Shown piece by piece: positions 21,912 through 41,179 of a stretch of DNA of 64,000 bases (positions are counted from its first letter, which is position 1; every line of letters starts with the position of its first letter). Source of the stretch: Lachnospiraceae bacterium (GTDB taxonomy: Bacteria; Bacillota; Clostridia; Lachnospirales; Lachnospiraceae); the NCBI GenBank assembly GCA_017428105.1, contig JAFRRM010000015.1, forward strand, positions 1-64,000, read 5' to 3'. The translations under genes were made by a program, and so were the position numbers. A model generated the notes under the pieces. That model made no database searches, was not told where the DNA came from, and worked only from the letters and a program-made list of their open reading frames with translations.

Positions 21912-22439
21912 TCAGTTCATCCGCCTGTTCCACAGTTTCCGGAACAGGGCTTCCACCTGCTCGTGGAGCAGCAGCGTGGGCAGGAAAGCGCTGACCGCCA
22001 GCATCAGCTCCCAGGGGATGTCCGTGATGATGTAGGCTTTCAGATTCCGGATCTGATTGGTCAGCACGAGGGCTGTGGGCACGATCATGGTCCAGCTGTA
22101 CAGAAAGGCGAATCCCGCGTTGGCAAAGGCCAGGGGGATGCTGCTTTCCGTTTTCCGGAGCAGCGTGCAGGTGATGAGCGGCCCCCACATCCAGCCGATC
22201 CACTGGGCCGTGGTGAAGATCGGGTTGAGCGAGCCCCACAGGGTGGAGTCCAGCAGCAGATAGACAGTCACGATGGCGGCGGTCCGCCCCAGCCCCAGCA
22301 CTTTCGCGTACAGGAGGATGAGGAAGAAATTCAGCGTCACGTTCGGCAGGAAGGTGAGCAGCTGTTTCTGCAGGAGCAGGATCGCCGTCAGGGCCGCCAT
22401 TACAACGATCTCATAAACGGGTAAAGGCGGTTTTTTCAT
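21912..22439 (-). CDS. ECF transporter S component, probably for a corrinoid
   Basis: A 175-residue membrane protein with six hydrophobic segments, the size and layout of substrate-capturing S components of energy-coupling-factor importers. ILLYAKVLGLGRTAAIVTVYLLLDSTLWG is typical of the helix 2-3 region. It lies 3 bases after the DUF4430 gene with no strong ribosome-binding site, so it is translationally coupled, and both sit behind a cobalamin riboswitch. Cobalamin or a precursor is therefore the likely substrate (inference). No EcfT or EcfA genes adjoin, so it must share a module encoded elsewhere. Confidence 0.75.
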   Translation of the reverse strand: MKKPPLPVYEIVVMAALTAILLLQKQLLTFLPNVTLNFFLILLYAKVLGLGRTAAIVTVYLLLDSTLWGSLNPIFTTAQWIGWMWGPLITCTLLRKTESSIPLAFANAGFAFLYSWTMIVPTALVLTNQIRNLKAYIITDIPWELMLAVSAFLPTLLLHEQVEALFRKLWNRRMN

Positions 22440-22442
22440 GAT

Positions 22443-23600
22443 TTACGGAGCAATATATACCGTGTTGATGAACTCGATCCTGTCGCCGTCGGCAAAAGGC
22501 TGGGTGGTCACGCCTTCCGACGCGTACTCGCCGTTGATGTAGAAGGCGATGTAGGTGTGGTAATCGGCGGGGGTGGTCAGGCTTTCGAGGGTCATCAGGA
22601 AACCGTTGTCGATGGTGACGTTCTCAAAGTTGGCTTCCAGCAGATCCGCCACGGTCTGGCCGGCCATGAAACCGACTTCTTTTTCGGCCAGGACGTTGTC
22701 TTTTTCATCCTTCACGGTAATGGTGACGTGGCCGTCGAATTCATCCGCCGGGACGGTCTCCGGGAGGTAGACCGTGTTGATGAACTCGATCTTATCGCCG
22801 TCGGCAAAAGGCTGCGTAGTCACGCCCTGCATCGCATATTCGCCGTTGACGAAGAAGGCGATGTAGGTGTGGTAATCGGCGGGCGTGGTCAGGCTTTCGA
22901 GGGTCATCAGGAAGCCGTTGTCGATGGTGACGTTCTCAAAGTTGGCTTCCAGCAGGTCCGCGACGGTCTGGCCGGCCATGAAACCGACTTCCTTTTCGGC
23001 CAGGACGCTGTCGTTTTCGTCCTTCACGGTGATGGTGACGTGGCCGTCGAATTCATCGGGTTCCGCGGTAGTGTCCTCAGGGATGTACACGGTATTGACG
23101 AATTCGATCTTGTCGCCGTCGGTGAAAGGCTGGGTGGTCACGCCCTGCATCGCGTACTCGCCATTGACATAGAAGGCGATGTAGGTGTGGTAGTCGGCGG
23201 GCGTGGTCAGGCTTTCGAGGGTCATCAGGAAGCCGTTGTCGATGGTGACGTTCTCAAAGTTGGCTTCCAGCAGATCGGCTACGGTCTGGCCGGCCTTGAA
23301 GCCGACTTCCTTATCGGCCAGGACTTTGCCGTTTTCGTCCTTCACGGTGATGGTGATGTGGCCGTCCACCGCTTCGGCGGGTTCGGTGGGGATTTCCGTG
23401 GCAGGCGCTTCGGTCACGGGGGCTTCGGTCCCCGGAGCCTCGGTCGCGGGGGCTTCGGTGGTGACGGCAGGGGCTTCCGTCGGAGCCGCGGCGGTGCGGC
23501 GGGGCTGTCCGCCCTTGTTCCCGAAAATGAGCCAGCAGGCAACGCCGAGCACCAGCAGCGCTGCCGCTGCCAGTACGATCTTCAGGGTCTTCTTATTCAT
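22443..23600 (-). CDS. Membrane-anchored protein with three DUF4430 (transcobalamin-like) domains
   Basis: A 385-residue surface protein: N-terminal transmembrane anchor (residues 7-28), a Thr/Pro/Glu/Ala-rich linker of tandem TEAP repeats to about residue 75, and three nearly identical DUF4430 domains of about 104 residues. Each contains DGHVTITVKDE, AGQTVADLLEANFENVTID and YAMQGVTTQPFADGDKIEF variants. DUF4430 resembles the C-terminal domain of transcobalamin/intrinsic factor, so it probably captures corrinoid outside the cell for the adjacent S component. The start at 23600 is chosen because a short upstream frame ends on it (ATGA); TTG at 23612 is an alternative. Confidence 0.75.
   Translation of the reverse strand: MNKKTLKIVLAAAALLVLGVACWLIFGNKGGQPRRTAAAPTEAPAVTTEAPATEAPGTEAPVTEAPATEIPTEPAEAVDGHITITVKDENGKVLADKEVGFKAGQTVADLLEANFENVTIDNGFLMTLESLTTPADYHTYIAFYVNGEYAMQGVTTQPFTDGDKIEFVNTVYIPEDTTAEPDEFDGHVTITVKDENDSVLAEKEVGFMAGQTVADLLEANFENVTIDNGFLMTLESLTTPADYHTYIAFFVNGEYAMQGVTTQPFADGDKIEFINTVYLPETVPADEFDGHVTITVKDEKDNVLAEKEVGFMAGQTVADLLEANFENVTIDNGFLMTLESLTTPADYHTYIAFYINGEYASEGVTTQPFADGDRIEFINTVYIAP
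22455..23375. repeat. Threefold tandem repeat within the DUF4430 gene
   Basis: Blocks of about 300 bases recur with periods of 312 and 318. For example the segments starting at 22557, 22869 and 23187 match over more than 100 bases with only a handful of differences. This indicates recent duplication or gene conversion of whole domains. Confidence 0.85.
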
Positions 23601-23656
23601 TTGTTTTCGCAAGGGATCTTCAGTCTTCGGCCGTGATCCGGCGGCGGAAGCCTCAA
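23597..23656 (-). CDS. Possible leader peptide upstream of the DUF4430 gene
   Basis: A TTG-initiated frame of 19 codons (LRLPPPDHGRRLKIPCENK) begins 10 bases after the strongest ribosome-binding site of the leader (TAGGAGG). Its TGA overlaps the DUF4430 ATG as ATGA. The main ATG itself has no good site, so translation of the leader may be needed to express the downstream gene. It could instead be noncoding platform sequence of the riboswitch. Confidence 0.35.
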   Translation of the reverse strand: MRLPPPDHGRRLKIPCENK

Positions 23657-23684
23657 GGCTTGCAATCCTCCTAAAAAATGCTTT

Positions 23685-23845
23685 CGGGTAAGTCTCCTGG
23701 CTCCGCTTCTTCCTCGGACCGCCTTCTCACAGGATCTCCCGCAATGGCTGAGTTTCCTCCCGGCCCTCGTCCGCGATACAGTTGCCGGTACAGCTGAGGC
23801 CTTTCACCTCATTCCTCGTTACGGCCTCGCGGCCACCCGATGCGG
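23685..23845 (-). promoter_or_regulatory. Cobalamin riboswitch
   Basis: On the minus strand the leader contains the B12 box AGCCAGGAGAC (near 23692-23702) close to its 3' end, GGAGGAAACTC and GCGGGAGATCCTGTGAGAAGGCGGTCC stretches, and GGCAACTG upstream. Order and length (about 160 bases) fit adenosylcobalamin-type aptamers, which normally shut off uptake genes when cobalamin is plentiful. No T-rich terminator follows; TTTTTTAGGAGG just downstream suggests control of ribosome access. Confidence 0.85.
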
Positions 23846-23849
23846 ACAC

Positions 23850-23878
23850 ATTATAGCAGGATGTCCGGTATAAAACAA
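23850..23878 (-). promoter_or_regulatory. Promoter of the cobalamin-riboswitch unit
   Basis: On the minus strand TTGTTT (23873-23878), 17-base spacer, perfect TATAAT (23850-23855). The transcript starts just ahead of the aptamer. Confidence 0.75.
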
Positions 23879-23969
23879 GGGGGCGGTGCCGTCACCGCCC
23901 CCGAAAAATACCGGGTCTGCCGCCCCGGGCCGGAAGGATCCGGTACGCGGCGGCGCTCCGGCCGTCCGA

Positions 23970-24494
23970 TCAGAACTCGATCCCCTTCCGGGCCGGGATG
24001 CCCCGGTCGAAGGGGTGCTTGATCTTTTTCATCTCGGTCACGTAATCCGCCAGCTCCACCAGGGCGGGAGAGGGATCGCGGCCGGTCAGGACAACTTCCA
24101 GGCCGTCGGGCTTGTTCTGCAGGAACCGGATGACCGCCTCCTCCGGGACCATGCCGCAGGAAATGGCGCCGAGGATCTCGTCCAGGACCAGCAGATCGTA
24201 CTGGTCCTCCGCGGCAAGGCGGACCGCCTCCCCGAACAGGCCGGTGAAATCCGCGCGGGCTCGGACTTTTTCTTCGTCGTCCATGGTCCAGATGAAGCCG
24301 TAAGGCTTTTCGCAGACCAGGATGCGGATGCCGGGGATCAGGCGGAGCGCGCTCAGCTCCGCGGAATCGCCGCGCTTCAGGTATTGGGTGAAGAGCACCT
24401 TCCGGCCGGCGCCGGCGGCGCGCACGGACAGGCCCACGGAAGCCGTGGTCTTGCCCTTGTTTTCCCCGCAGTAGATATGGATCAGACCGCTCAT
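23970..24494 (-). CDS. cobA: Cob(I)alamin adenosyltransferase, CobA/BtuR type
   Basis: A 174-residue ATP:corrinoid adenosyltransferase that makes the coenzyme form, adenosylcobalamin. The P-loop reads CGENKGKTTASVGLSVRAAG at residues 9-28, and Walker B-like DLLVLDEILGAISCG follows. The C-terminal PFDRGIPARKGIEF is the family ending. The start at 24494 has TTGGAGGAAAAG upstream. It is divergent from kamB and adjoins corrinoid uptake, so it probably supplies AdoCbl to the lysine 5,6-aminomutase encoded at 32-34 kb (inference). Confidence 0.93.
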   Translation of the reverse strand: MSGLIHIYCGENKGKTTASVGLSVRAAGAGRKVLFTQYLKRGDSAELSALRLIPGIRILVCEKPYGFIWTMDDEEKVRARADFTGLFGEAVRLAAEDQYDLLVLDEILGAISCGMVPEEAVIRFLQNKPDGLEVVLTGRDPSPALVELADYVTEMKKIKHPFDRGIPARKGIEF

Positions 24495-24534
24495 AAGACT
24501 TTTCCTCCAATGACAGGTGTTGGTTTCACCGCTT

Positions 24535-24563
24535 ATGGTAGCGTGACAGGAAGCATTTGTCAA
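24535..24563 (-). promoter_or_regulatory. Promoter of cobA
   Basis: On the minus strand TTGACA (24558-24563), 17-base spacer, TACCAT (24535-24540). Its -35 overlaps that of the divergent kamB promoter almost completely. Confidence 0.65.
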
Positions 24564-24585
24564 TTTGGAAAAAGCGTGGTATGAT
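24557..24585 (+). promoter_or_regulatory. Promoter of kamB
   Basis: TTGTCA (24557-24562), 17-base spacer, TATGAT (24580-24585), about 27 bases before the kamB start. Confidence 0.65.
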
Positions 24586-24612
24586 ACGCGCAGAAACGAA
24601 GGGTGATGCCAA

Positions 24613-25587
24613 ATGAGACTGCTGGATCTGACAGCCGGGGAACCGGCGGTGGCGATGCTGGGCATGTGCAAGAATGCCGGCAAGACCACCGCGCTGAACC
24701 GTCTGATCCGCGAGCTGGGGGAAGCGGGCGCGGCGTCCGCGGCGCTCACCAGCATCGGACGCGACGGCGAAGCCCGGGACCTGGTCACGGGGACGGACAA
24801 ACCGCCCATCTATATGCGCGAAGGCATGCTGGCCGCCACGGCGGAACAGCTTTTATCGCTGTGCGACGTTTCCCGGGAGATCCTGTCCGCCACGGGGCTG
24901 TACACGAGCCTGGGCGAGGTGATCCTGTTCCGGGCGCGGAGCGACGGCTTCGTGCAGCTGGCCGGCCCGGGCATCGTGGCCCACATGAAGCGGCTGCGGG
25001 GCGAGTTCGCCCGCTTCGGGGCGTCGCCGGTGCTGATCGACGGCGCGCTCAGCCGCCTGAGTCTGCTGGCCGGGGCGTCCGACGGGGTCTGCGTCCTGTC
25101 CACCGGCGCTTCGCTGGACCGGAACCCGGACCGCGTGGTGGCGGAAACGGCCTATGTGGCGGCCCTGCTGGGGCTGCCGGAAAAGGCGGCGCCCGGAGCG
25201 CCGCGGGGGAAACTGACCCTGTTCGGGGCGGAGCCCGAAGGCCGGCCGGTCACGGACCTGGCGCGGATCGGCCGCGCGGAGCCGGAGGAAACGCTGCTTT
25301 CGGAAGGCGCCTTCACGGAGACGCAGGCCCGCGCGCTGCTCAGAGGCTATACGAAGAAGGAAGGCCTGACCCTGCTGGTGCGGGACGCCAGCTGCCTGAT
25401 GCTGAAGCGGGAGACGTACGAAGCGCTCGCCGCCCGCGGCATGGACTTTGCGGTCCGGCAGGGGACCCGGCTGGCCGCGGTGACGGTCAACAGCGTTTCC
25501 GCCGGCGGCTGGCGCTTCGACGGCGATGAGTTCCGGGAAAAAATGCAGGCGGCGGTGAACGTGCCGGTGCTGGACGTGAAGAAATAA
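24613..25587 (+). CDS. kamB: KamB-type P-loop protein of the lysine fermentation cluster
   Basis: A 324-residue protein with a Walker A motif MLGMCKNAGKTTALNRL at about residues 15-31. No kinase or GTPase family signature is obvious beyond that. Proteins of this kind pair with a MutS-like protein (KamC) in lysine 5,6-aminomutase and ornithine 4,5-aminomutase clusters, where they have been proposed to help reactivate the B12 enzyme. That role is inference here. It is followed by kamC after 38 bases. The divergent promoter shared with cobA supports a B12 link. Confidence 0.75.
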   Translation: MRLLDLTAGEPAVAMLGMCKNAGKTTALNRLIRELGEAGAASAALTSIGRDGEARDLVTGTDKPPIYMREGMLAATAEQLLSLCDVSREILSATGLYTSLGEVILFRARSDGFVQLAGPGIVAHMKRLRGEFARFGASPVLIDGALSRLSLLAGASDGVCVLSTGASLDRNPDRVVAETAYVAALLGLPEKAAPGAPRGKLTLFGAEPEGRPVTDLARIGRAEPEETLLSEGAFTETQARALLRGYTKKEGLTLLVRDASCLMLKRETYEALAARGMDFAVRQGTRLAAVTVNSVSAGGWRFDGDEFREKMQAAVNVPVLDVKK

Positions 25588-25625
25588 AGCAGGCGGGCGC
25601 GGAAGGCTCCGCCGGAGAATACGAC

Positions 25626-27059
25626 ATGATCAGACTGAGTTACGAACAGAAAGAAGACATCGGCCTCAAATATGTGCGGGACATGCTGGATCCGGCAAGC
25701 CCTTACGGCGTGAAATATCTGAAAGCCGAGGGGTTTTACGGGTCGGCCCGGCAGCAGGCGCTGGAAGAGGAACTGAACAATATCGCCCTGCTGCGGCGGG
25801 ACCTGGAGGAAGCCGGGGACGCCGCGGCGGACCTGGTGCACGCGCTGAGCGAGCTGAAGGACCTGTCCGGGACGTTCGCAAACGGAATGACGCAGGCGCT
25901 CACGGAGGTGGAATTGTTCGAACTGTCCGCGTTCTGCCGGCGGATGCGGGAACTGAAGCGGCTGGCGGAGAAACTGCCGTCGTATCCGCAGCTGGCCGGA
26001 ACACGGCTGGAACCGGTGGAGGACGCGCTGCGGGTGCTGGATCCCGCGGGAAGCAGCGCAGGCGGGTTTTATATTGAAGATGACCGCACGCCCGCATTGG
26101 CCCGCGCGCGCGGCGCCAAACGAGCGGCGGAACTGAAGCTGCGCGCCGCGGCGGAAGAGGAGCGGGAGGAACTGCTGCGGCAGCGGCAGGAGGCGGCCCG
26201 GCAGGAGGAAGACGCCCTGCGGGCGGTCTACGCCGCGATGAGCGCGGCCCTGCGTCCGTATCTGCCTGTATTGCAGCGGGATGCGGCGGCGGCCGGCCGG
26301 CTGGACGCGGACATCGCGAAAGCCCTGCTGGCCCGGCGTCTTGGCTGTACGCGCCCGGAAATGGGCGGCGGGGACCTGGTGCTGGAAGAGGCCGTCCACC
26401 CGCAGGTGGCGGCAGCCCTGGCGGAACGGGGCCGGGATTTCACGCCCATCACCATGACCCTGTCCCGCGGCGTGACCGTGCTGACCGGCGCCAACATGGG
26501 CGGGAAAAGCATCGCCCTGAAGACGGCGCTCTTAAATGCGGCGCTGGCCTTGAGCGGCTGCTTCGTCTTTGCGCGGCGCGCCCGCGTGCCGTTTTTTGAC
26601 CGGATCGAAGTGATCAACCGCGACTTCTCCAACGCCTCGCAGGGCCTCTCCAGCTTCGGCGGCGAGATCCTGCGGCTGAAGGAAGCGCTGGAAAACCTGC
26701 GCGAAGGAGGCCTGTCCCTGATCGTCATGGACGAGCTGGCCCGCGGCACCAACGCCCGCGAAGGCGCGCACATCGCCCGCGGGACCGTGCGTTATCTGGC
26801 GGACAAAAATGCCGTGACGCTGCTCGCTACGCATTATGACGGCGCGGCGGAAGGCGCCGTCCGTCATTACCAGGTGAAGGGCCTGGCGGAGCGGGACGAA
26901 GCCGCCTGGCAGCCCGCCGGGGACGGCCGGGACGGCCTGCGGCGGATCGAAAACGCGATGGATTACGGCCTGATCGAGGTCCGGCCGGGGACGGAATGCC
27001 CCCGCGACGCCGTCGCCATCTGCCGCCTGCTGGGCCTGCCGGAGGAAATCCTGTCATGA
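25626..27059 (+). CDS. kamC: KamC-type MutS-like ATPase
   Basis: A 477-residue protein homologous to the core and ATPase domains of MutS, lacking the mismatch-recognition N-terminus of true MutS (about 850 residues). Walker A is LTGANMGGKSIALKT near residue 285, followed by the signature DFSNASQGLSSFGGEI, Walker B SLIVMDELARGTNAREG and the H-loop LLATHYDG. The middle region is helical with many Arg/Glu. With kamB it probably forms the AdoCbl-enzyme maintenance pair rather than a DNA-repair protein. It overlaps the next gene by 4 bases. Confidence 0.8.
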   Translation: MIRLSYEQKEDIGLKYVRDMLDPASPYGVKYLKAEGFYGSARQQALEEELNNIALLRRDLEEAGDAAADLVHALSELKDLSGTFANGMTQALTEVELFELSAFCRRMRELKRLAEKLPSYPQLAGTRLEPVEDALRVLDPAGSSAGGFYIEDDRTPALARARGAKRAAELKLRAAAEEEREELLRQRQEAARQEEDALRAVYAAMSAALRPYLPVLQRDAAAAGRLDADIAKALLARRLGCTRPEMGGGDLVLEEAVHPQVAAALAERGRDFTPITMTLSRGVTVLTGANMGGKSIALKTALLNAALALSGCFVFARRARVPFFDRIEVINRDFSNASQGLSSFGGEILRLKEALENLREGGLSLIVMDELARGTNAREGAHIARGTVRYLADKNAVTLLATHYDGAAEGAVRHYQVKGLAERDEAAWQPAGDGRDGLRRIENAMDYGLIEVRPGTECPRDAVAICRLLGLPEEILS

Positions 27060-27952
27060 CGGCGGAAAAGACCCCGAAAAAGAAAAAGAAGAGAGAAGCC
27101 GGCCTGCTGCGGATCATGCCCCTGAACTTCGCCGTCGGTTTTTCCGGGCCGGTCATCTTTTTCGGCGCGATGATGATCCTGCTCCATACGGGAGCCTGGT
27201 GCGTGCCGCTGTTCCTTTCGTATCTCGCCCTGCTGATCATGCCTTCGGCGTACTGGGTCGGCCGGCGGGATCTGAACAACCAGCATTATGTCCTGGGGGA
27301 CGAGGTGTTTTATACGGAATATCCGGAGGAAAGGAAAAAAGCCCTCCGCCGGATGCGCCGGAAGGGCATCCCGGGCGAACGGCAGGACGTGGCGGAACGA
27401 TACCGCCGGGAACCGGTGCCGGAGTTCGGAGAAGAGAATGAACGGTTCATAAAGGAACGCCGCCGGGGCCGCCTGCTGTTCCTCATCGCCGCGGTCCTGC
27501 TGGCCGCGCTGGCGGCCTGGCTGTTTGTACAGACGGAACATCTCTGGCGGGTCAACCGCGGCGCCGGGCGGAAACAGCCGGATCTCTCGTGGATCTTCCC
27601 GCTGGCGGGCGGGATCCTGGTGCTGGCCACGGCGCTCCTCGCGCTGTTCCGGAGGAAAAATCGCTGGCTGTATCTGGCTGCCCAGCTCGTGCTGCTGTTC
27701 GGCGCGTGGGGCGCTTACGTCTCCGTGTCCGTGAACGCGCGCCTGGTGCTGGCGGACGTCCTGAAGGGCTTCGGCTGCGCCGTTCTGTACGCCCTGATCT
27801 GGTTCGGCCCGCTGCATTTTGCCAGAGACCTGAGATCCCGGGAGGAGGCGTACCGGGTATATGCGGAACAGCAGATCGAACTGTTCGAACTCGGCTGCTT
27901 TGATGAGGACGTGCTGCGCATACGGTTGGAAAAACGGCGGCAGACCGGGTAA
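27056..27952 (+). CDS. Membrane protein coupled to kamC
   Basis: A 298-residue protein starting with a Lys-rich cytoplasmic stretch, then two transmembrane helices (about residues 25-65), a hydrophilic Arg/Glu-rich loop, and about four more helices between residues 135 and 260. No transporter or enzyme signature is recognised. Its ATG overlaps the kamC stop (ATGA), so it is made together with KamB and KamC. It could be a lysine or product transporter component or a membrane partner, but the sequence alone does not say which. The lysine operon promoter starts at its stop codon. Confidence 0.55.
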   Translation: MTAEKTPKKKKKREAGLLRIMPLNFAVGFSGPVIFFGAMMILLHTGAWCVPLFLSYLALLIMPSAYWVGRRDLNNQHYVLGDEVFYTEYPEERKKALRRMRRKGIPGERQDVAERYRREPVPEFGEENERFIKERRRGRLLFLIAAVLLAALAAWLFVQTEHLWRVNRGAGRKQPDLSWIFPLAGGILVLATALLALFRRKNRWLYLAAQLVLLFGAWGAYVSVSVNARLVLADVLKGFGCAVLYALIWFGPLHFARDLRSREEAYRVYAEQQIELFELGCFDEDVLRIRLEKRRQTG

Positions 27953-27987
27953 AAAATGCTTGATTTTTTTCTCTTTTTTATTATAAT
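27951..27987 (+). promoter_or_regulatory. Promoter of the lysine-riboswitch operon
   Basis: TTGATT (27960-27965), 16-base spacer, perfect TATAAT (27982-27987). AAAAAAT (27951-27957) and ATTTTTT (27963-27969) make an inverted repeat with the -35 in its loop and 3' arm. Confidence 0.75.
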
Positions 27988-28000
27988 GTTCGTGTGATAT

Positions 28001-28019
28001 CCGCGGACACCGTCCGCGG
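28001..28019 (+). other. Stable hairpin at the 5' end of the lysine leader
   Basis: CCGCGGAC (28001-28008) pairs perfectly with GTCCGCGG (28012-28019) around ACC, starting only about 7 bases into the transcript. It may protect the RNA 5' end. There is no T tract. Confidence 0.6.
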
Positions 28020-28048
28020 GATGTGCCAGTATTTACAATCGAACAAGA

Positions 28049-28212
28049 CCGATAGAGGCGCAGGGCGCAGGGTAACGTTCCTTCCATGGCATCAGGCAGT
28101 GCCGAAGGAGCGCGAAGGGGCGCTTTGCCGAAGGATGCGGCCGGCCGACGCCGTTTCCTGGGAACCGGGCCCATCGCCAGTTCCTGTCATGATGATCATG
28201 AAGCGCTATCCG
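28049..28212 (+). promoter_or_regulatory. Lysine riboswitch (L box) aptamer
   Basis: The segment begins GATAGAGGCGC (28051-28061) and ends AAGCGCTATC (28201-28210), forming stem P1 by pairing GATAG with CTATC. Conserved blocks match the Bacillus lysC element as I recall it: GATAGAGG at the start, AAGGGGCGC followed by GCCGAAG (28126-28132), a stem closed by GGATGCGGC and GCCGTTTCC, then CTGGGA, and a terminal hairpin TCATGA-TGA-TCATGA. Length (about 160 bases) fits. It lies directly upstream of kal, so lysine itself is sensed before its own degradation genes. Confidence 0.85.
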
Positions 28213-28242
28213 AGGAATGACCCGGACGGCGCTTGTTCTTTA
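28201..28242 (+). terminator. Expression-platform hairpin competing with aptamer stem P1
   Basis: AAGCGC (28201-28206) pairs with GCGCTT (28229-28234), extended by TCCG/CGGA inside, giving about 11 pairs with one mismatch and a 10-base loop. GTTCTTTAT follows, a moderately T-rich tail. The 5' arm includes CTATC (28206-28210), the 3' strand of P1, so the hairpin and the ligand-stabilised aptamer exclude each other. Confidence 0.55.
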
Positions 28243-28296
28243 TGGGGGCCGCATCGCCCCGCTGCCAAAACACATTTTACCGAGGAGGACATCCAG

Positions 28297-28683
28297 ATGA
28301 AATCACTCATTCGCATCCGCATGGGAGCGGAAGACGCCCATTACGGCGGGAACCTGGTGGACGGCGCCCATATGCTCCACCTGTTCGGTGACGTGGCCAC
28401 CGAGCTGCTGATCCGCCACGACGGCGACGAAGGCCTGTTCTGCGCCTACGACAACGTGGAATTCCTGGCGCCCGTGTTCGCCGGCGATTACATCGAGGCG
28501 GAAGGGGAGATCGTCCACGTGGGCAACACCTCCCGCAAGATGGTCTTTGAGGCCCGCAAGGTGATCGTGCCCCGCCCGGACATCAATGAATCCGCCTGCG
28601 ACGTGCTGGAGGAGCCGATCGTGGTCTGCCGGGCCAGCGGTACCTGCGTGGTCCCGAAGGATAAGCAGCGGGGGAACCGCTGA
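28297..28683 (+). CDS. kal: 3-aminobutyryl-CoA ammonia-lyase
   Basis: A 128-residue hot-dog-fold enzyme that removes ammonia from L-3-aminobutyryl-CoA to give crotonyl-CoA, the last lysine-specific step of the anaerobic pathway. The family pattern is clear: [20 protein letters not shown], then [20 protein letters not shown] and [12 protein letters not shown]. The start at 28297 follows GAGGAGGAC. It is the first gene after the lysine riboswitch and overlaps kce by one base (TGATG). Hot-dog thioesterases look similar, but the neighbours settle the call. Confidence 0.9.
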
Positions 28684-29498
28684 TGGAAAAACTCATCATC
28701 ACCGCCGCCATCTGCGGCGCGGAAGTGACCAAGGAGCAGAATCCCGCTGTGCCCTACACGGTCGAGGAGATCGTGCGCGAAGCGAAGAGCGCCTATGACG
28801 CCGGCGCCGCCATCGTGCATCTGCACGTGCGCCGGGACGACGGCACGCCCACGCAGGACCGCGAGCGGTTCCGCGAATGCATCGACGCCATCCGGAAGGA
28901 GATCCCGGACGTGATCCTGATCCCCTCTACCGGCGGCGCCGTGGGCATGACCGCCGAAGAGCGCCTGCAGCCCACCGAGCTGTTCCCGGAGATGGCCACG
29001 CTGGACTGCGGCACCTGCAACTTCGGCGACGACGTCTTTGAAAACACCATGCCCATCATGCGGGCGTTCGGGAAGCGGATGCTGGAAAACCGCATCAAGC
29101 CCGAATACGAATGCTTCGAAATGGGCCATCTGGATACCGTGCTGACCATGGCTCGCAAGGGACAGGTCCCCGGCGCGCCCATGCAGTTCAATTTTGTGCT
29201 GGGCGTCCCCGGCTGCGCTCCGGCCACGGTGGAGAACCTGGCCTGGCTGGTGCGGAACATCCCGGCCGGCAGCACCTGGACCGCCACCGGCATCGGCCGC
29301 GCGGCCTTCCCCATGGCCGCCGCCGCCATCATCATGGGCGGCAACGTGCGCGTCGGCTTTGAGGACAACCTGTACCTCGAAAGAGGCGTCCTTGCGAAAA
29401 GCAACGGAGAACTCGTCGCCAAGGTCGTCCGCCTTGCCAGGGAACTGGGGCGGGAGATCGCGACGCCCGCGGAAGCCCGGAAGATCCTGGGCCTGTGA
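28683..29498 (+). CDS. kce: 3-keto-5-aminohexanoate cleavage enzyme
   Basis: A 271-residue TIM-barrel, zinc-dependent enzyme of the BKACE (DUF849) family. It condenses acetyl-CoA with 3-keto-5-aminohexanoate and splits the product to 3-aminobutyryl-CoA and acetoacetate. The zinc ligands are His46 and His48 in AAIVHLHVRRDDG, the same numbering as in characterised Kce enzymes as I recall. GGNVRVGFEDNLYLERG near residues 219-235 is the C-terminal family signature. It is translationally coupled to kal. Acetoacetate made here could be activated by the ligase at 48.7 kb. Confidence 0.93.
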   Translation: MEKLIITAAICGAEVTKEQNPAVPYTVEEIVREAKSAYDAGAAIVHLHVRRDDGTPTQDRERFRECIDAIRKEIPDVILIPSTGGAVGMTAEERLQPTELFPEMATLDCGTCNFGDDVFENTMPIMRAFGKRMLENRIKPEYECFEMGHLDTVLTMARKGQVPGAPMQFNFVLGVPGCAPATVENLAWLVRNIPAGSTWTATGIGRAAFPMAAAAIIMGGNVRVGFEDNLYLERGVLAKSNGELVAKVVRLARELGREIATPAEARKILGL

Positions 29499-29539
29499 CC
29501 GATCGCCCGCGCAGGATCATTCATTCACAAAAACCCGGA

Positions 29540-29605
29540 GGCCGGCGTCCCGCCGGTCCGCCGGAACAAATTGACGGCAGAGGCCGGCCGCCCGCCGGTC
29601 CGCCC
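29540..29605 (+). repeat. GC-rich 24-base direct repeat between kce and kdd
   Basis: The 24-base unit at 29540-29563 recurs at 29582-29605 with two mismatches (AGGCCGGC and GCCGGTCCGCC ends shared). Each copy contains an internal GGCCGGC/GCCGG inverted repeat, so each could form a hairpin in the mRNA. This 139-base gap is the only sizeable one inside the operon. Confidence 0.6.
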
Positions 29606-29637: not shown

Positions 29638-30681
29638 ATGGAACAGCTGAAAGGCAATAAATACGGCACCCACCGCGTCATCGAGCCCAAGGGCGTCCTG
29701 ACCCAGGCGGCCTGGAAGATCGACAACGACATGACCAAGCATTACTCCAACGAGATCATCTGCGACGTGATCTCCCTGAACATCGACTCCGCGTCCTTCA
29801 CGCAGATCGAAGAAGCCTGCGGCGGCGACGAGCAGAAGATCGGCGAAATGATCATGGGCATCGTGGCCGAGCGCGGCAAGCAGCAGAACCCGGTCACCGG
29901 CTCCGGCGGCATGTTCATCGGCAAGGTCGCTTACATCGGCGACGACCTGAAGGACCGCGACCTGAAGGTGGGCGACAAGATCGCTTCCCTGGTGAGCCTG
30001 TCCCTGACCCCGCTGAAGATCGATAAGATCCTGGCCATCCACAAGGCCATCGACCGTGTGGACATCGTCGGCCAGGCCGTGCTGTTCGAAAGCGGCCTGT
30101 ACGCCAAGCTGCCCGACGACATGTCCGAAGCGCTGGCCCTGGCGGCCCTCGACGTGGCCGGCGCGCCGGCCCAGGCCCGCCGCCTGCCCAAGGAAGGCGA
30201 CAGCGTGCTGATCCTGGGCGCCAACGGCAAATCCGGCGTGCTCTGCGCATATGAAGCCATGAAGAAGGTCGGCCCGAACGGCAACGTGGTCGGCGTGGTC
30301 CGCAACCCGAAGCAGGTCCCCGGCCTGATGGAACTGGGCGTGTACCACAAAGTGGTGGTGGCCTCCGCCACCGAGCCCGTCGCCGTGCTGGAAGCGGCCC
30401 TGGAAGCCAACGGCGGGAAGGAATACGACCTGTCCATCAGCTGCGTGAACGTGGAAGCCTGCGAGATGAGCGCCATCCTGCCCGTCAAAGAGGGCGGCAC
30501 GGTCTACTTCTTCTCCATGGCCACCAGCTTCACCCGCGCGGCCCTGGGCGCCGAAGGCGTAGGCAAGGACATCACGATGATCGTCGGCAACGGCTACGCG
30601 AAGAACCACGCGGAGATCACGCTGAACGTGCTGCGCGAAAACGCGAAGATCCGTGAATTATTCGACAAGAAGTACGTATAA
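29638..30681 (+). CDS. kdd: L-erythro-3,5-diaminohexanoate dehydrogenase
   Basis: A 347-residue NAD(P)-dependent enzyme that deaminates 3,5-diaminohexanoate oxidatively to 3-keto-5-aminohexanoate. The N-terminus GTHRVIEPKGVLTQAAWKID is characteristic. A Rossmann nucleotide-binding motif lies at VLILGANGKSGVL, and the C-terminal half has ISCVNVEACEMSAILPVKEGG. AGAGAGGAG precedes the start. The step follows KamDE and feeds Kce. Confidence 0.92.
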   Translation: MEQLKGNKYGTHRVIEPKGVLTQAAWKIDNDMTKHYSNEIICDVISLNIDSASFTQIEEACGGDEQKIGEMIMGIVAERGKQQNPVTGSGGMFIGKVAYIGDDLKDRDLKVGDKIASLVSLSLTPLKIDKILAIHKAIDRVDIVGQAVLFESGLYAKLPDDMSEALALAALDVAGAPAQARRLPKEGDSVLILGANGKSGVLCAYEAMKKVGPNGNVVGVVRNPKQVPGLMELGVYHKVVVASATEPVAVLEAALEANGGKEYDLSISCVNVEACEMSAILPVKEGGTVYFFSMATSFTRAALGAEGVGKDITMIVGNGYAKNHAEITLNVLRENAKIRELFDKKYV

Positions 30682-30703
30682 CAGGCATAAAGGAGAGAAC
30701 GTC

Positions 30704-31957
30704 ATGCAGACCCGCAACGGATTATTTGCCAAAGTGCCGGCAGAACAGTGGAACGACTGGAAATGGCAGGTGCGCAACCGCATCGAGACGGTGGAGGACC
30801 TGAAAAAGTATATCGCGATCACGCCCGAAGAGGAAGAAGGCATCCGCCAGTGCCTGGGCGTGCTGCGCATGGCCATCACCCCCTACTACCTGTCCCTGAT
30901 CGATCTGGACGATCCCCACGACCCGATCCGCCGCCAGGCCATCCCGACGGCCCAGGAACTGCATAAAGCGGACGCGGATCTGCTGGATCCCCTGCATGAG
31001 GACACGGACTCCCCGGTGAAGGGCCTGACCCACCGCTATCCGGACCGCGTGCTGCTGCTGGTGACGGACCAGTGCTCCATGTACTGCCGCCACTGCACGC
31101 GCCGCCGCTTCGCCGGCCAGCACGACCAGGCCGTGCCGCTGGAGCAGATAGACGCCTGCATCGAATATGTGCGGAACCATCCGGAAGTGCGCGACGTCCT
31201 GATCTCCGGCGGCGACCCGCTGGTGATGAGCGACGACCGTCTGGAATACATCATCGCCAAGGTGCGCGAGATCCCGCACGTGGAGATCGTCCGCATCGGC
31301 AGCCGCACGCCGGTCGTCATGCCGCAGCGCGTCACGCCCGAACTGTGCGCGATGCTGAAGAAATACCACCCGGTATGGCTGAACACCCATTTCAACCATC
31401 CGAAGGAAGTCACCGAAGAATCCAAACGCGCCTGCGCGATGCTGGCGGACGCCGGCGTCCCGCTGGGCAACCAGAGCGTACTGCTGGCCGGCGTCAACGA
31501 CTGCGTCTTCACCATGAAGAAACTGGTGCATGAACTGGTCAGGATGCGCGTGCGGCCGTACTATATCTACCAGTGCGACCTGTCCATGGGCCTGGAGCAT
31601 TTCCGCACGCCGGTGGGCAAGGGCATCGAGATCATCGAGGGCCTGCGCGGCCACACCAGCGGTTTCTGCGTGCCCACCTTCGTCGTGGACGCGCCCGGCG
31701 GCGGCGGCAAGATCCCGGTGATGCCGGACTACGTGATCTCCCAGACGCCCCGCAAGGTGATCCTGCGCAACTTCGAAGGCGTGATCACCACCTACACGGA
31801 GCCCGAAAACTATAAGGAGACCTGCCAGTGCGAATACTGCCGCGGCGAAAAGCCGGCGAAGCTGGTCGGCGTGGCCGGGCTGGAGCGCGGCCAGGCATTG
31901 AGCCTGGAGCCCAAGGGACTGGCCCGCACCGAGCGCTGCAGCTGCAAAGGGGAATAA
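30704..31957 (+). CDS. kamA: Lysine 2,3-aminomutase
   Basis: A 417-residue radical-SAM, PLP-dependent enzyme converting L-lysine to L-beta-lysine, the entry step of lysine fermentation. The iron-sulfur motif is CSMYCRHC with Cys at residues 124, 128 and 131, near-identical in spacing to the Clostridium enzyme. The PLP lysine lies in APGGGGKIPVMPDY. The C-terminal CQCEYC region provides zinc-ligand cysteines. AAGGAGAG precedes the start. Length and order fit KamA exactly. Confidence 0.96.
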   Translation: MQTRNGLFAKVPAEQWNDWKWQVRNRIETVEDLKKYIAITPEEEEGIRQCLGVLRMAITPYYLSLIDLDDPHDPIRRQAIPTAQELHKADADLLDPLHEDTDSPVKGLTHRYPDRVLLLVTDQCSMYCRHCTRRRFAGQHDQAVPLEQIDACIEYVRNHPEVRDVLISGGDPLVMSDDRLEYIIAKVREIPHVEIVRIGSRTPVVMPQRVTPELCAMLKKYHPVWLNTHFNHPKEVTEESKRACAMLADAGVPLGNQSVLLAGVNDCVFTMKKLVHELVRMRVRPYYIYQCDLSMGLEHFRTPVGKGIEIIEGLRGHTSGFCVPTFVVDAPGGGGKIPVMPDYVISQTPRKVILRNFEGVITTYTEPENYKETCQCEYCRGEKPAKLVGVAGLERGQALSLEPKGLARTERCSCKGE

Positions 31958-31959
31958 AT

Positions 31960-33519
31960 ATGGCAAGCAAGATCGGTTTAGACCAGGCGCTGGTGGATAA
32001 GGCCCGCGCGTCCGCCGCCCGGGTGGCGGAGGATACGCAGCGCTTCATCGACCGGCACACCACCGTCGCGGTGGAACGGACGGTCTGCCGCCTGCTGGGC
32101 ATCGACGGGATCAACGACGTGGAGGTCCCCATGCCCAACGTGGTGGTGGAGCATCTGACGGAAAAGAATATCCTGGCGGACGGCGCGGCGCTGCGCATCG
32201 GCAACGCGATGGCGGAACTGGGGCTGGGCCCGCAGGAGATCGCCGAAGGCATCGACCGCGGCGAGATCGACCTGGCGGCGCTTCCGCTGCATCCGGACGC
32301 GGAGATCCGCGCGGCCCTGGCACCCGCGGTCGCGGCCACGATGGCCCGCATCCGCACCAACGTCGCGAAACGCAGGGAATATCTGACGGAGTTCGGCGAC
32401 AAGAAGGGCCCGTACATCTATCTGATCGTCGCCACCGGCAACATTTACGAAGACATCACCCAGGCCAAGGCGGCGGCCAAGCAAGGCGCGGACGTCATCG
32501 CCGTGATCCGCACCACCGGCCAGAGCCTGCTGGACTTCGTGCCCTACGGCGCGACCACGGAAGGCTTCGGCGGCACCTACGCCACCCAGGAGAACTTCCG
32601 TCTGATGCGCGCGGCCCTGGACGAAGTGGGAGAGGAGCAGCACCGCTGCATCCGCCTCTGCAACTACTGCTCCGGTCTCTGCATGCCGGAGATCGCGGCC
32701 ATGGGCGCGCTGGAGCGTCTGGACGTGATGCTGAACGACGCGCTGTACGGCATCCTGTTCCGGGACATCAACATGCAGCGCACCATCGTGGACCAGTATT
32801 TCTCCCGCGTGATCAACGGCTTTGCCGGCGTCATCATCAACACCGGCGAGGACAACTACCTGACCACGGCCGACGCCTATGAGGAAGCCCACACCGTGCT
32901 GGCCAGCCAGTTCCTGAACGAGCAGTTCGCCGTGCAGGCGGGCCTGCCCGAGGAGCAGATGGGCCTCGGCCACGCGTTCGAGATGGATCCGGACCTGCCC
33001 AACGCCTTCCTCTACGAGCTGGCGCAGGCGCAGATGGCCCGCGAGATCTTCCCGAAGGCGCCGCTGAAATACATGCCGCCCACCAAATTCATGACGGGCA
33101 ACATCTTCCGCGGCCACGTGCAGGACGCCCTGTTCAACATGGTGACCATCCTGACGAACCAGAAGATCCACCTGCTGGGCATGATGACCGAAGCCATCCA
33201 CACCCCGTTCATGAGCGACCGTGCCCTGGCCATCGAGAACGCGCAGTACATTTTCCGCACCATGGCGGACCTGGGCGAGGACATCGAGTACAAGAAGGGC
33301 GGCATCATCCAGAGCCGCGCGGCCGAAGTGCTCAAGAAGGCGGCGGATCTTCTGGGCGAGATCGAACGCATCGGCCTGTTCGCCACCCTGGAGAAGGGCG
33401 TGTTCGCGGACATCAAACGCCCGCTGGACGGCGGCAAGGGCCTGGACGGCGTGACGACCAAATCCGACCGCTATTTCAACCCCTTCATTGAGGAAATGAG
33501 GAAGGAGGCGCGCGCATGA
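31960..33519 (+). CDS. kamD: Beta-lysine 5,6-aminomutase, alpha subunit
   Basis: A 519-residue large subunit of the AdoCbl- and PLP-dependent mutase that moves the terminal amino group of beta-lysine to give 3,5-diaminohexanoate. It forms the TIM barrel that holds the substrate and the adenosyl moiety. Recognisable stretches are IYLIVATGNIYEDITQAKAA, YGATTEGFGGTYATQENF and NMVTILTNQKIHLLGMMTEA. The start follows AAAGGGGAATAA, 2 bases after kamA. It overlaps kamE by 4 bases, fitting a 1:1 complex. Confidence 0.95.
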   Translation: MASKIGLDQALVDKARASAARVAEDTQRFIDRHTTVAVERTVCRLLGIDGINDVEVPMPNVVVEHLTEKNILADGAALRIGNAMAELGLGPQEIAEGIDRGEIDLAALPLHPDAEIRAALAPAVAATMARIRTNVAKRREYLTEFGDKKGPYIYLIVATGNIYEDITQAKAAAKQGADVIAVIRTTGQSLLDFVPYGATTEGFGGTYATQENFRLMRAALDEVGEEQHRCIRLCNYCSGLCMPEIAAMGALERLDVMLNDALYGILFRDINMQRTIVDQYFSRVINGFAGVIINTGEDNYLTTADAYEEAHTVLASQFLNEQFAVQAGLPEEQMGLGHAFEMDPDLPNAFLYELAQAQMAREIFPKAPLKYMPPTKFMTGNIFRGHVQDALFNMVTILTNQKIHLLGMMTEAIHTPFMSDRALAIENAQYIFRTMADLGEDIEYKKGGIIQSRAAEVLKKAADLLGEIERIGLFATLEKGVFADIKRPLDGGKGLDGVTTKSDRYFNPFIEEMRKEARA

Positions 33520-34304
33520 GCTCCGGACTGTATGATATGTCCGCGAAGGACTTTGACAAGACCCTGGATCTGTCTGCCATCAAGCCCTACGGCGATACCA
33601 TGAATGACGGCAAAGTACAGCTGTCCTTCACCCTTCCCGTAGCCAACAACGACCGCGGCATGGAAGCCGCCCGCATCCTGGCGAAGAAAATGGGGCTCAC
33701 CGAGCCGAACGTGGCCTATGCCCGCACGCTGGACGCGGAATTCACGTTCTACGTGGTCTACGGCTCCTGCACCCATACGGTGGATTACAACAACATCAAG
33801 ATCCAGGCCATCGAGGACGTGTCCATGGAAATGGATGAAGTGGACGAGTACATCAGGGAGCACATCGGCCGGAAGATCGTGGTGCTCGGAGCCTCCACCG
33901 GCACGGACGCCCACACCGTGGGCATCGACGCCATCATGAACCGCAAGGGCTTTGCCGGCCACTACGGCCTGGAGCGCTACGAGATGATCGAAGCTCTCAA
34001 CATGGGCGCGCAGGTGCCCAACGAGGAATTCCTGGCCAAGGCGAAGGAGATCAATGCGGATGTGCTGCTGGTGAGCCAGACCGTGACCCAGAAAAACATC
34101 CACATCATCAACCTCACCGAACTCATCGAACTGGCCGAAGCCGAAGGCCTCCGGTCGAAATGCGTCATGTGCTGCGGCGGCGCCCGCATCACCCACGAAC
34201 TCGCCAAGGAGCTCGGCTTCGACGCCGGCTTCGGTCCCGGCAAATTCGCCAACGACGTCGCGACGTTCTGCGTGAAGGAGATGGTCAGGAGAGGGATGAA
34301 GTAA
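33516..34304 (+). CDS. kamE: Beta-lysine 5,6-aminomutase, beta subunit (B12-binding)
   Basis: A 262-residue small subunit with the Rossmann-type cobalamin-binding domain. The DxHxxG motif is DAHTVG, whose His133 would be the lower cobalt ligand, and Lys144 eleven residues later would hold PLP. Both numbers equal those described for the Clostridium sticklandii enzyme. The downstream part (GLERYEMIEALNMGAQVPNE and VMCCGGARITHELAKELGFD) completes the fold. It ends the operon at a strong palindromic terminator. Activity requires adenosylcobalamin, linking it to cobA and the riboswitch-controlled uptake genes. Confidence 0.96.
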   Translation: MSSGLYDMSAKDFDKTLDLSAIKPYGDTMNDGKVQLSFTLPVANNDRGMEAARILAKKMGLTEPNVAYARTLDAEFTFYVVYGSCTHTVDYNNIKIQAIEDVSMEMDEVDEYIREHIGRKIVVLGASTGTDAHTVGIDAIMNRKGFAGHYGLERYEMIEALNMGAQVPNEEFLAKAKEINADVLLVSQTVTQKNIHIINLTELIELAEAEGLRSKCVMCCGGARITHELAKELGFDAGFGPGKFANDVATFCVKEMVRRGMK

Positions 34305-34308
34305 ACAA

Positions 34309-34340
34309 CAAAAAAACGGCCCCGCGGGGCCGCTTTTTTG
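34309..34340. terminator. Bidirectional terminator between kamE and ridA
   Basis: CGGCCCCGCGGGGCCG (34317-34332) is a perfect palindrome flanked by an A run on the left and TTTTTT on the right, so it can end both the kam operon and the convergent ridA transcript. Confidence 0.9.
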
Positions 34341-34353
34341 TTTGCCGCTGCTG

Positions 34354-38838: not shown

Positions 38839-39729
38839 ATGAAACTTGGATTTATCGGATTAGGGATCATGGGACGGCCGCTGGCCAAGCATCTGGTCAA
38901 GGCGGGCTTCGACGTCATGGTATCGGACGTGAATCCGGTCCCCGTACAGGAACTGGTCTCCATGGGAGCAGGCACCGGGACGTACGCCGAGATCGGCGAG
39001 CAGTGCGAGGTCGTGATCACGATCCTGCCCACGGGCGGCATCGTGCAGTCGGTTCTCTTCGGCGAGGGCGGCATCGCTTCCACCCTGAAGCCCGGCAGCC
39101 TCGTGATCGATCACAGCTCCGTGACTCCGGTGGAGTCCCGGGAGTGCTATGCCAAGCTGCAGGAGAAGGGCGTTGCGTTCGTGGACGCGCCCGTGTCCGG
39201 CGGTGAGCCCGGCGCGATCGCCGGCACCCTGGCCATCATGGCGGGCGGCGACGAAGAGGCTTTCGAGCGGGCCAAGAAGTATATGGAGCCCTACGCTTCC
39301 TCCATCCTCCTGATCGGGCCGGTCGGCAGCGGCAGCGTCGCCAAATTGGCCAACCAGATCATCGTGAACAACAACATCGCCATCGTTTCCGAAGCTCTGA
39401 CCTTCGCCGTGAAGGCCGGCGCCGACCCGGAAAAGGTCTACCTGGCGATCCGCGGCGGCCTGGCCGGTTCCGCGGTGCTGGACGCCAAGGCGCCCATGAT
39501 GTACAACCGCAATTTCGTCCCGGGCGGCCCCATCCGCATCAACCACAAGGACATTACCAACGTGGTGAAGACCGCGCACGCGATCGACGCGCCGATCCCC
39601 TACACTGCGCAGCTGTACGAGATCATGCAGTCCCTGAAGATCCACGGCCTGATGGGCGAGGACCATTCCGCCATCGTGAAGTATTTTGAGGCCATGGGCG
39701 ACGTCGTAGTCGAAAAGAAGGAGAAATAA
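38839..39729 (+). CDS. NAD-dependent beta-hydroxyacid dehydrogenase (GarR/LtnD-like)
   Basis: A 296-residue member of the 3-hydroxyisobutyrate dehydrogenase superfamily. The Rossmann motif GFIGLGIMGRPLAKHLVKAG opens the protein, followed by the substrate loop DAPVSGGEPGAIAGTLAIMAGG and the catalytic Lys in GSVAKLANQIIVNNNIA. Members include tartronate semialdehyde reductase (GarR) and L-threonate dehydrogenase (LtnD). The neighbouring DUF1537 kinases favour a four-carbon sugar-acid substrate (inference). GAAAGGAG precedes the start, and the next gene starts one base after the stop. Confidence 0.85.
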   Translation: MKLGFIGLGIMGRPLAKHLVKAGFDVMVSDVNPVPVQELVSMGAGTGTYAEIGEQCEVVITILPTGGIVQSVLFGEGGIASTLKPGSLVIDHSSVTPVESRECYAKLQEKGVAFVDAPVSGGEPGAIAGTLAIMAGGDEEAFERAKKYMEPYASSILLIGPVGSGSVAKLANQIIVNNNIAIVSEALTFAVKAGADPEKVYLAIRGGLAGSAVLDAKAPMMYNRNFVPGGPIRINHKDITNVVKTAHAIDAPIPYTAQLYEIMQSLKIHGLMGEDHSAIVKYFEAMGDVVVEKKEK

Positions 39730-39730
39730 G

Positions 39731-41155: not shown

Positions 41156-41179
41156 CGAAACGGCAGAGAGGAGAGATCC

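What the first reader, a model, noticed from the sequence alone, without database searches (positions are those of the whole stretch)
28049..28212. Lysine riboswitch placed in front of the lysine-degradation operon
The leader of kal-kce-kdd-kamADE carries the L-box landmarks (GATAGAGG start, GGGGCGC...GCCGAAG core, CTGGG, closing CTATC). Lysine riboswitches are best known as OFF switches for lysine biosynthesis and import. Here the same sensor precedes a complete catabolic operon, so ligand logic should be inverted. I think related placements may have been noted in comparative work, but I cannot verify this.
Basis: partly seen in the sequence, partly recalled or inferred. Interest (0 to 1): 0.82.

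Follow-up and report, generated by a model that had tools for sequence, protein, structure and literature searches.

The report
Lysine switch turning on lysine breakdown
A known kind of RNA sensor for the amino acid lysine sits in front of the genes a rumen bacterium uses to ferment lysine, and its layout predicts that lysine switches these genes on rather than off; this placement was already described in other bacteria, but the mechanism is unusually clear here and has not, as far as I found, been tested at the bench.

Summary
Rfam RF00168 (lysine riboswitch) matches window 28045-28216 (+) over the whole model with 71.5 bits, E = 1e-16. It lies 80 nt upstream of kal-kce-kdd-kamA-kamD-kamE, all six above NCBIfam equivalog cut-offs, with no plus-strand terminator until after kamE.

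The inverted logic is strongly supported by anatomy. The J5/1-P1 3' strand of the aptamer is itself the 5' arm of an intrinsic terminator (28201-28234, then GTTCTTTAT), so lysine-stabilised P1 and the terminator exclude each other: an ON switch. Of 34 lysine riboswitches placed before kal or kamA in related genomes, 32 have this P1-overlapping terminator, against 3 of 102 before other genes (Fisher p = 2.6e-25; shuffles 9 of 960). Some congeners carry both this ON type and a separate-terminator type.

Placement and ON logic are not new: kal/kce-linked lysine riboswitches were reported in 2017, and ON-type lysine riboswitches were cited in 2007. I call it a new member of a known kind. New here are the sharp ON/OFF split by gene context, and presence of the switch at the operon in Bacillota but not in Bacteroidota with close Kce relatives. 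Ligand response is untested.

The parts
27960..27987 (+). sigma-70-type promoter-like site TTGATT-16-TATAAT
   Evidence: 10 of 12 matches; 0.3 expected by chance
28001..28019 (+). perfect 8-bp hairpin CCGCGGAC-ACC-GTCCGCGG near the presumed 5' end of the transcript
   Evidence: sequence; formed in the MFE of the leader
28045..28216 (+). lysine riboswitch aptamer (RF00168)
   Evidence: 71.5 bits, E 1.1e-16, full-length match
28051..28055 (+). P1 5' strand GATAG
   Evidence: structure line
28206..28210 (+). P1 3' strand CTATC, shared with the terminator 5' arm
28201..28244 (+). P1-overlapping intrinsic terminator: hairpin AAGCGCTATCCGAGG-AATGA-CCCGGACGGCGCTT (28201-28234, -18.2 kcal/mol) followed by GTTCTTTATG
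   Evidence: pairing probability near 1 in the leader without ligand constraint
28282..28288 (+). Shine-Dalgarno-like GAGGAGG of kal
   Evidence: sequence
28297..28683 (+). kal, 3-aminobutyryl-CoA ammonia lyase
   Evidence: NF052388 200.5 bits, cut-off 160
28683..29498 (+). kce, 3-keto-5-aminohexanoate cleavage enzyme
   Evidence: NF052387 435.6 bits, cut-off 382
29638..30681 (+). kdd, L-erythro-3,5-diaminohexanoate dehydrogenase
   Evidence: NF052381 261.6 bits, cut-off 200
30701..31957 (+). kamA, lysine 2,3-aminomutase
   Evidence: TIGR03820 628.9 bits, cut-off 525
31960..33519 (+). kamD, lysine 5,6-aminomutase alpha
   Evidence: NF052384 911.8 bits, cut-off 600
33516..34304 (+). kamE, lysine 5,6-aminomutase beta
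   Evidence: NF052385 398.3 bits, cut-off 280
34307..34342 (.). bidirectional terminator closing the operon
24613..27059 (+). kamB and kamC, lysine 5,6-aminomutase reactivase genes, upstream of and outside the riboswitch-controlled unit
   Evidence: NF052386 and NF052383 above cut-off

Best explanation
It is a lysine-sensing transcriptional ON riboswitch. As the leader is transcribed, the aptamer folds and P1 forms first. If lysine is bound, P1 and the J5/1 core hold the sequence AAGCGCUAUC; the terminator hairpin, which needs exactly those bases as its 5' arm, cannot form, and polymerase reads through into kal-kce-kdd-kamA-kamD-kamE. Without lysine the emerging 3' arm (CCCGGACGGCGCUU) invades, P1 is lost, the hairpin forms ahead of the U-rich stretch and transcription stops. 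The operon for fermenting lysine is thus opened by its own substrate. Shown: aptamer, operon, mutually exclusive pairing, conservation. Inferred: lysine binding, read-through, direction of regulation in the cell.
For: Aptamer; core motifs AGAGGyGC and GCCGAA in 34 of 34 kal/kamA-linked riboswitches, aligned. Operon. P1 and terminator share bases; in silico P1 probability is 0.96 when transcribed to 28216, 0.07 at 28230 and 0 at 28236 while the terminator pairs reach about 1. P1-overlapping terminator at -15 kcal/mol or better in 32 of 34 kal/kamA-linked riboswitches versus 3 of 102 at other genes; Fisher p 2.6e-25; 9 of 960 shuffles. Three further kal-linked leaders outside that set fold the same way. 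The P1 base that toggles C/T (position 4) keeps its P1 partner in 32 of 33 and its terminator partner in 33 of 33; positions just beyond P1 carry GC, CG, TA and AT pairs with 33 of 33 paired (hairpins were chosen by folding, so the contrast with other genes and shuffles is the fair test). Riboswitches in the same genus before an antiporter-type gene or dapA have a separate downstream terminator. Where the operon is split (G001, G006), the ON riboswitch stands before kamA, not kal. External: in Intestinimonas AF211 the proteins of the lysine operon were about 10-fold induced on lysine (PMC4697335); whether that strain has the riboswitch was not checked.
Against: The window's own U-tract is imperfect (TT-GTTCTTTAT), the stem has a mismatch and a bulge, and the simple terminator scanner did not list it. 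No lysine-binding, transcription or expression data exist for this organism. Sequences in the test are related and some near-identical, so the p-value overstates independence. One kal-linked member (G464) has no P1-terminator and no predicted antiterminator.
Confidence: 0.88

Rival explanations
1. An ordinary OFF lysine riboswitch that ended up in front of a catabolic operon; lysine would reduce transcription.
For: Most lysine riboswitches are OFF, and 80 of 102 riboswitches at other genes here have only a separate downstream terminator.
Against: No separate terminator-like hairpin is detected downstream in the window leader; the only one uses the P1 3' strand, as in 32 of 34 kal/kamA-linked cases.
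Confidence: 0.05
2. Translational control: the riboswitch governs access to the kal ribosome site rather than, or in addition to, termination.
For: In several congeners the GGAGG follows the U-tract directly (L040, L042). The window's U-tract is imperfect.
Against: The spacing between aptamer and kal varies widely among relatives (kal match 36 to 267 nt after the aptamer) while hairpin plus U-tract is constant; kal has its own GAGGAGG outside the conserved hairpin.
Confidence: 0.06
3. The aptamer of this catabolic group senses a lysine derivative or pathway intermediate rather than lysine.
For: Bit scores of the kal-linked members of the window's genus (about 59-78) are lower than those of most riboswitches at other genes, and the P2 turn reads AGGGTA instead of the consensus AugAGUA in most aligned members.
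Against: The conserved core motifs are kept in all 34; differences lie in P2 and loops; the first enzyme of the pathway uses lysine itself.
Confidence: 0.04

Closest known systems
Lysine riboswitches before kal/kce in Clostridium sticklandii, Fusobacterium nucleatum and Thermoanaerobacter (PMC5584792, section 13)
   Same: Same aptamer class, same target genes, presumed positive regulation.
   Different: That report, in its main text, lists the placement and cites positive regulation; here the expression platform is worked out and compared across 136 riboswitches. The window operon starts with kal and runs through kamE; Thermoanaerobacter has a regulator gene first.
ON-type lysine riboswitches of Rodionov et al. 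2003, as cited in PMC2258182
   Same: Ligand binding buries a piece of the terminator stem.
   Different: The 2003 paper was not readable here, so the identity of its examples could not be compared.
Bacillus subtilis pbuE (ydhL) adenine riboswitch (from memory; ON logic for adenine cited in PMC2258182)
   Same: Works alike: P1 3' strand is part of the terminator, ligand gives read-through.
   Different: Different aptamer and ligand.
OFF lysine riboswitches, e.g. B. subtilis lysC, or L035-L037 in the window's genus
   Same: Same RF00168 aptamer.
   Different: Terminator lies separately downstream and an antiterminator, not the terminator, uses the P1 3' strand.

Membership tests
Lysine riboswitch (RF00168) | Covariance-model score above the gathering threshold over the whole model | tested here: met
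   71.5 bits against 30, positions 1-182
Lysine riboswitch (RF00168) | Five-helix junction with conserved core (TAGAGG.GC, GCCGAAG, CTGG, AGNGCTA) | tested here: met
Lysine riboswitch (RF00168) | L2-L3 kissing loop and P2 turn motifs | tested here: inconclusive
   P2 turn reads CAGGGTA, one base shorter than the consensus; the kissing loop is not in the model and was not tested rigorously
Lysine riboswitch (RF00168) | Binds L-lysine | not testable with these tools
   needs in-line probing or calorimetry
Transcriptional ON riboswitch | Terminator and ligand-stabilised P1 share a strand and exclude each other | tested here: met
Transcriptional ON riboswitch | Terminator hairpin followed by a U-tract, conserved in relatives | tested here: met
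   32 of 34 kal/kamA-linked leaders; the window's own tract is imperfect
Transcriptional ON riboswitch | Ligand raises read-through | not testable with these tools
   needs transcription assay or reporter
Lysine fermentation operon (acetate/butyrate pathway) | kamA, kamDE, kdd, kce, kal present and co-directional | tested here: met

The most novel reading that the evidence does not exclude
A natural lysine-ON riboswitch lineage whose single-hairpin platform has the P1 strand as the terminator arm has been kept or carried with the lysine-fermentation operon through several Bacillota families, while Bacteroidota with close relatives of Kce lack it; in some species it coexists with a separate-terminator (OFF-type) lysine riboswitch before an antiporter-type gene, so that one metabolite could lower the expression of one gene and open its own fermentation through the same aptamer class.
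Probability: 0.55. Interest if true: 0.45.

Novelty: new member of a known kind. Interest (0 to 1): 0.36.

Why it matters
It gives a clean natural experiment in how one riboswitch aptamer is wired for opposite logic by where the terminator is placed, within one genus and even within one genome. It predicts substrate induction of a lysine-fermenting, ammonia-releasing pathway of rumen bacteria without a protein regulator. If confirmed, it supplies a natural lysine-ON part for biosensors, where such parts have mostly been engineered (own knowledge). The existence of lysine-ON riboswitches before kal was already proposed, so the gain is in mechanism and breadth, not in kind.

Tried and rejected
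The simple terminator scan did not list the key hairpin; a fold-based search with a U-tract test was used instead. The first version of that test merged antiterminator and terminator in dapA/asd leaders (L050, L051, L053) and was replaced by a shortest-hairpin rule; some leaders still called P1-terminator at other genes were read by eye: L071 and L103 look like antiterminators over a nested terminator, and L219 ends at a contig end and resembles kal-linked L215. Eight loci came back on the opposite strand and were re-oriented. A second mechanism was examined in G192, where withdrawing the P1 strand yields an antiterminator; in G464 none was predicted. Altered ligand specificity was considered and given low weight. 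Rodionov 2003 could not be opened. Motif scanning of loci not covered by the Rfam search is less sensitive than the covariance model: it missed L160.

Full report
What is there. The Rfam lysine riboswitch model matches window 28045-28216 (+) over its full length at 71.5 bits, E = 1.1e-16. It is the only RF00168 match in the 45-contig, 2.26-Mb assembly. The closest named relatives are labelled Lachnospiraceae from ruminants; 13 of 15 congeners searched carry at least one lysine riboswitch.

Genes. Downstream stand kal, kce, kdd, kamA, kamD and kamE, each above the curated NCBIfam equivalog cut-off. No + strand terminator-like site was found from 29400 until 34317, where a bidirectional terminator closes the unit. 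The reactivase genes kamB and kamC lie upstream (24613-27059), with one protein of no recognised family between them and the riboswitch. A promoter-like site lies at 27960-27987.

Expression platform. The aptamer ends ...GAAGCGCTATC. The stretch AAGCGCTATCCGAGG pairs with CCCGGACGGCGCTT directly downstream to give a hairpin of -18.2 kcal/mol (28201-28234), followed by GTTCTTTATG. Its 5' arm therefore contains J5/1 and the whole P1 3' strand. In silico, P1 is formed with mean probability 0.96 when the RNA ends at 28216, 0.85 at 28225, 0.07 at 28230 and 0 from 28236, as the hairpin takes over. Ligand stabilisation of P1 would oppose the hairpin: ON logic, with no extra antiterminator needed.

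Is this more than chance, and is it tied to gene content? I assembled 136 lysine-riboswitch leaders from related genomes. Thirty-four stand before kal (32) or kamA (2). At a threshold of -15 kcal/mol, 32 of these 34 have a P1-overlapping terminator, against 3 of 102 at other genes (Fisher p = 2.6e-25); shuffling the 3' part while keeping P1 and the U-tract gives 9 of 960. One of the three exceptions, L219, lies at a contig end in a genome with the operon and looks like the kal type. Related sequences inflate the p-value, but the pattern also holds in distant members (L114, L119). Three additional kal-linked leaders outside the set (L136, L165, L198) fold the same way. The two kal-linked exceptions are G192, in which withdrawing the P1 strand allows an antiterminator, another route to ON logic, and G464, which stays unclear.

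Three-way pairing. Across 33 P1-terminator leaders the P1 positions can pair in both states: the base after CTAT toggles C/T with its P1 partner (32 of 33 paired) and its terminator partner (33 of 33), and stem positions just beyond P1 vary through GC, CG, AT and TA while staying paired. Because hairpins were selected by folding, pairing counts alone are not independent proof; the contrast with other genes and shuffles is.

Contrast within one genus. G004, G013 and G014 carry both the kal-type switch and a lysine riboswitch before a Na+/H+-antiporter-family gene (PF03553) with a separate terminator starting 14-16 nt after the aptamer. By eye, in L036 and L037 the P1 3' strand TATCGTGAC can pair with the terminator arm GTCATGATA, as expected of an OFF switch. 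G002 lacks a detectable kal and has only separate-terminator switches, one before dapA. In G001 and G006 kal has no riboswitch motif in the upstream sequence at hand (only about 120 nt for G006) and the ON switch stands before kamA.

Distribution. A Kce tree of 85 sequences places riboswitch-bearing operons with Bacillota; Bacteroidota with 82-90% identical Kce have none. All 25 of the 50 named genomes that have a lysine riboswitch are Bacillota-labelled. The remaining 30 loci were not searched with the covariance model in that call; all but L120 (the same contig as G007, which has it) are Bacteroidota-labelled, and a cruder motif scan of all 80 loci found the riboswitch only in Bacillota loci. 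The riboswitch label needs 3 changes on the tree against 25 in shuffles; deep forks are poorly resolved, so the direction of transfer is not settled. In a wider class sample, 23 of 391 genomes have Kal above the cut-off, and only the window genome, G192 and G464 have a lysine riboswitch directly before it, so riboswitch control of kal is a minority arrangement in the class.

Known or new. PMC5584792 describes lysine riboswitches before kal/kce in C. sticklandii, F. nucleatum and Thermoanaerobacter and states positive regulation. PMC2258182 attributes ON logic by burying terminator pieces to certain lysine riboswitches, citing Rodionov 2003, which is not held. A 2026 covariation study of whole riboswitches modelled the lysine class as a whole; in the passages read, no kal-linked ON platform is described. 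I found no experimental test of a natural lysine-ON riboswitch in the papers searched, though subscription papers are mostly missing. In Intestinimonas AF211 the proteins of the lysine operon are about 10-fold higher on lysine (PMC4697335), in line with the predicted direction, but that strain's leader was not examined.

Verdict. The value lies in a well-resolved mechanism and a sharp association between gene context and switch polarity.

Noticed in passing
23670-23855 (-), with 21912-24809 (-): Cobalamin riboswitch (78.6 bits) before a protein with three DUF4430 repeats and a small membrane protein, next to a CobA-type corrinoid adenosyltransferase; plausibly supplies adenosylcobalamin to KamDE.
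   Followed up: partly
26996-27952 (+): 318-aa protein with no Pfam or NCBIfam match between kamC and the riboswitch.
   Followed up: no
L033 / G009:C127:5018-5184: Lysine riboswitch with a separate terminator before an isochorismatase-domain protein (PF00857), an unusual target.
   Followed up: partly
L232 / G446:C18:527184-527337 and 527430-527585: Two lysine riboswitches in tandem, each followed by its own terminator-like hairpin.
   Followed up: no
28068-28074 and the same place in kal-linked relatives: P2 turn reads CAGGGTA instead of the consensus cAugAGUA, one base shorter; shared by most aligned kal-linked aptamers.
   Followed up: partly
L123-L199, loci labelled Bacteroidota: Bacteroidota Kce proteins are 82-90% identical to the window's, closer than those of other members of its own order (61-69%), suggesting horizontal transfer of the operon.
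   Followed up: partly
29538-29602 (+): GC-rich imperfect repeat (GGCCGGC..CCGCCGGTCCGCC) in the 139-nt gap between kce and kdd.
   Followed up: no
38839-42484 (+): 2-hydroxy-3-oxopropionate-reductase-like gene followed by two further co-directional genes that look like four-carbon acid sugar kinases (by eye).
   Followed up: no
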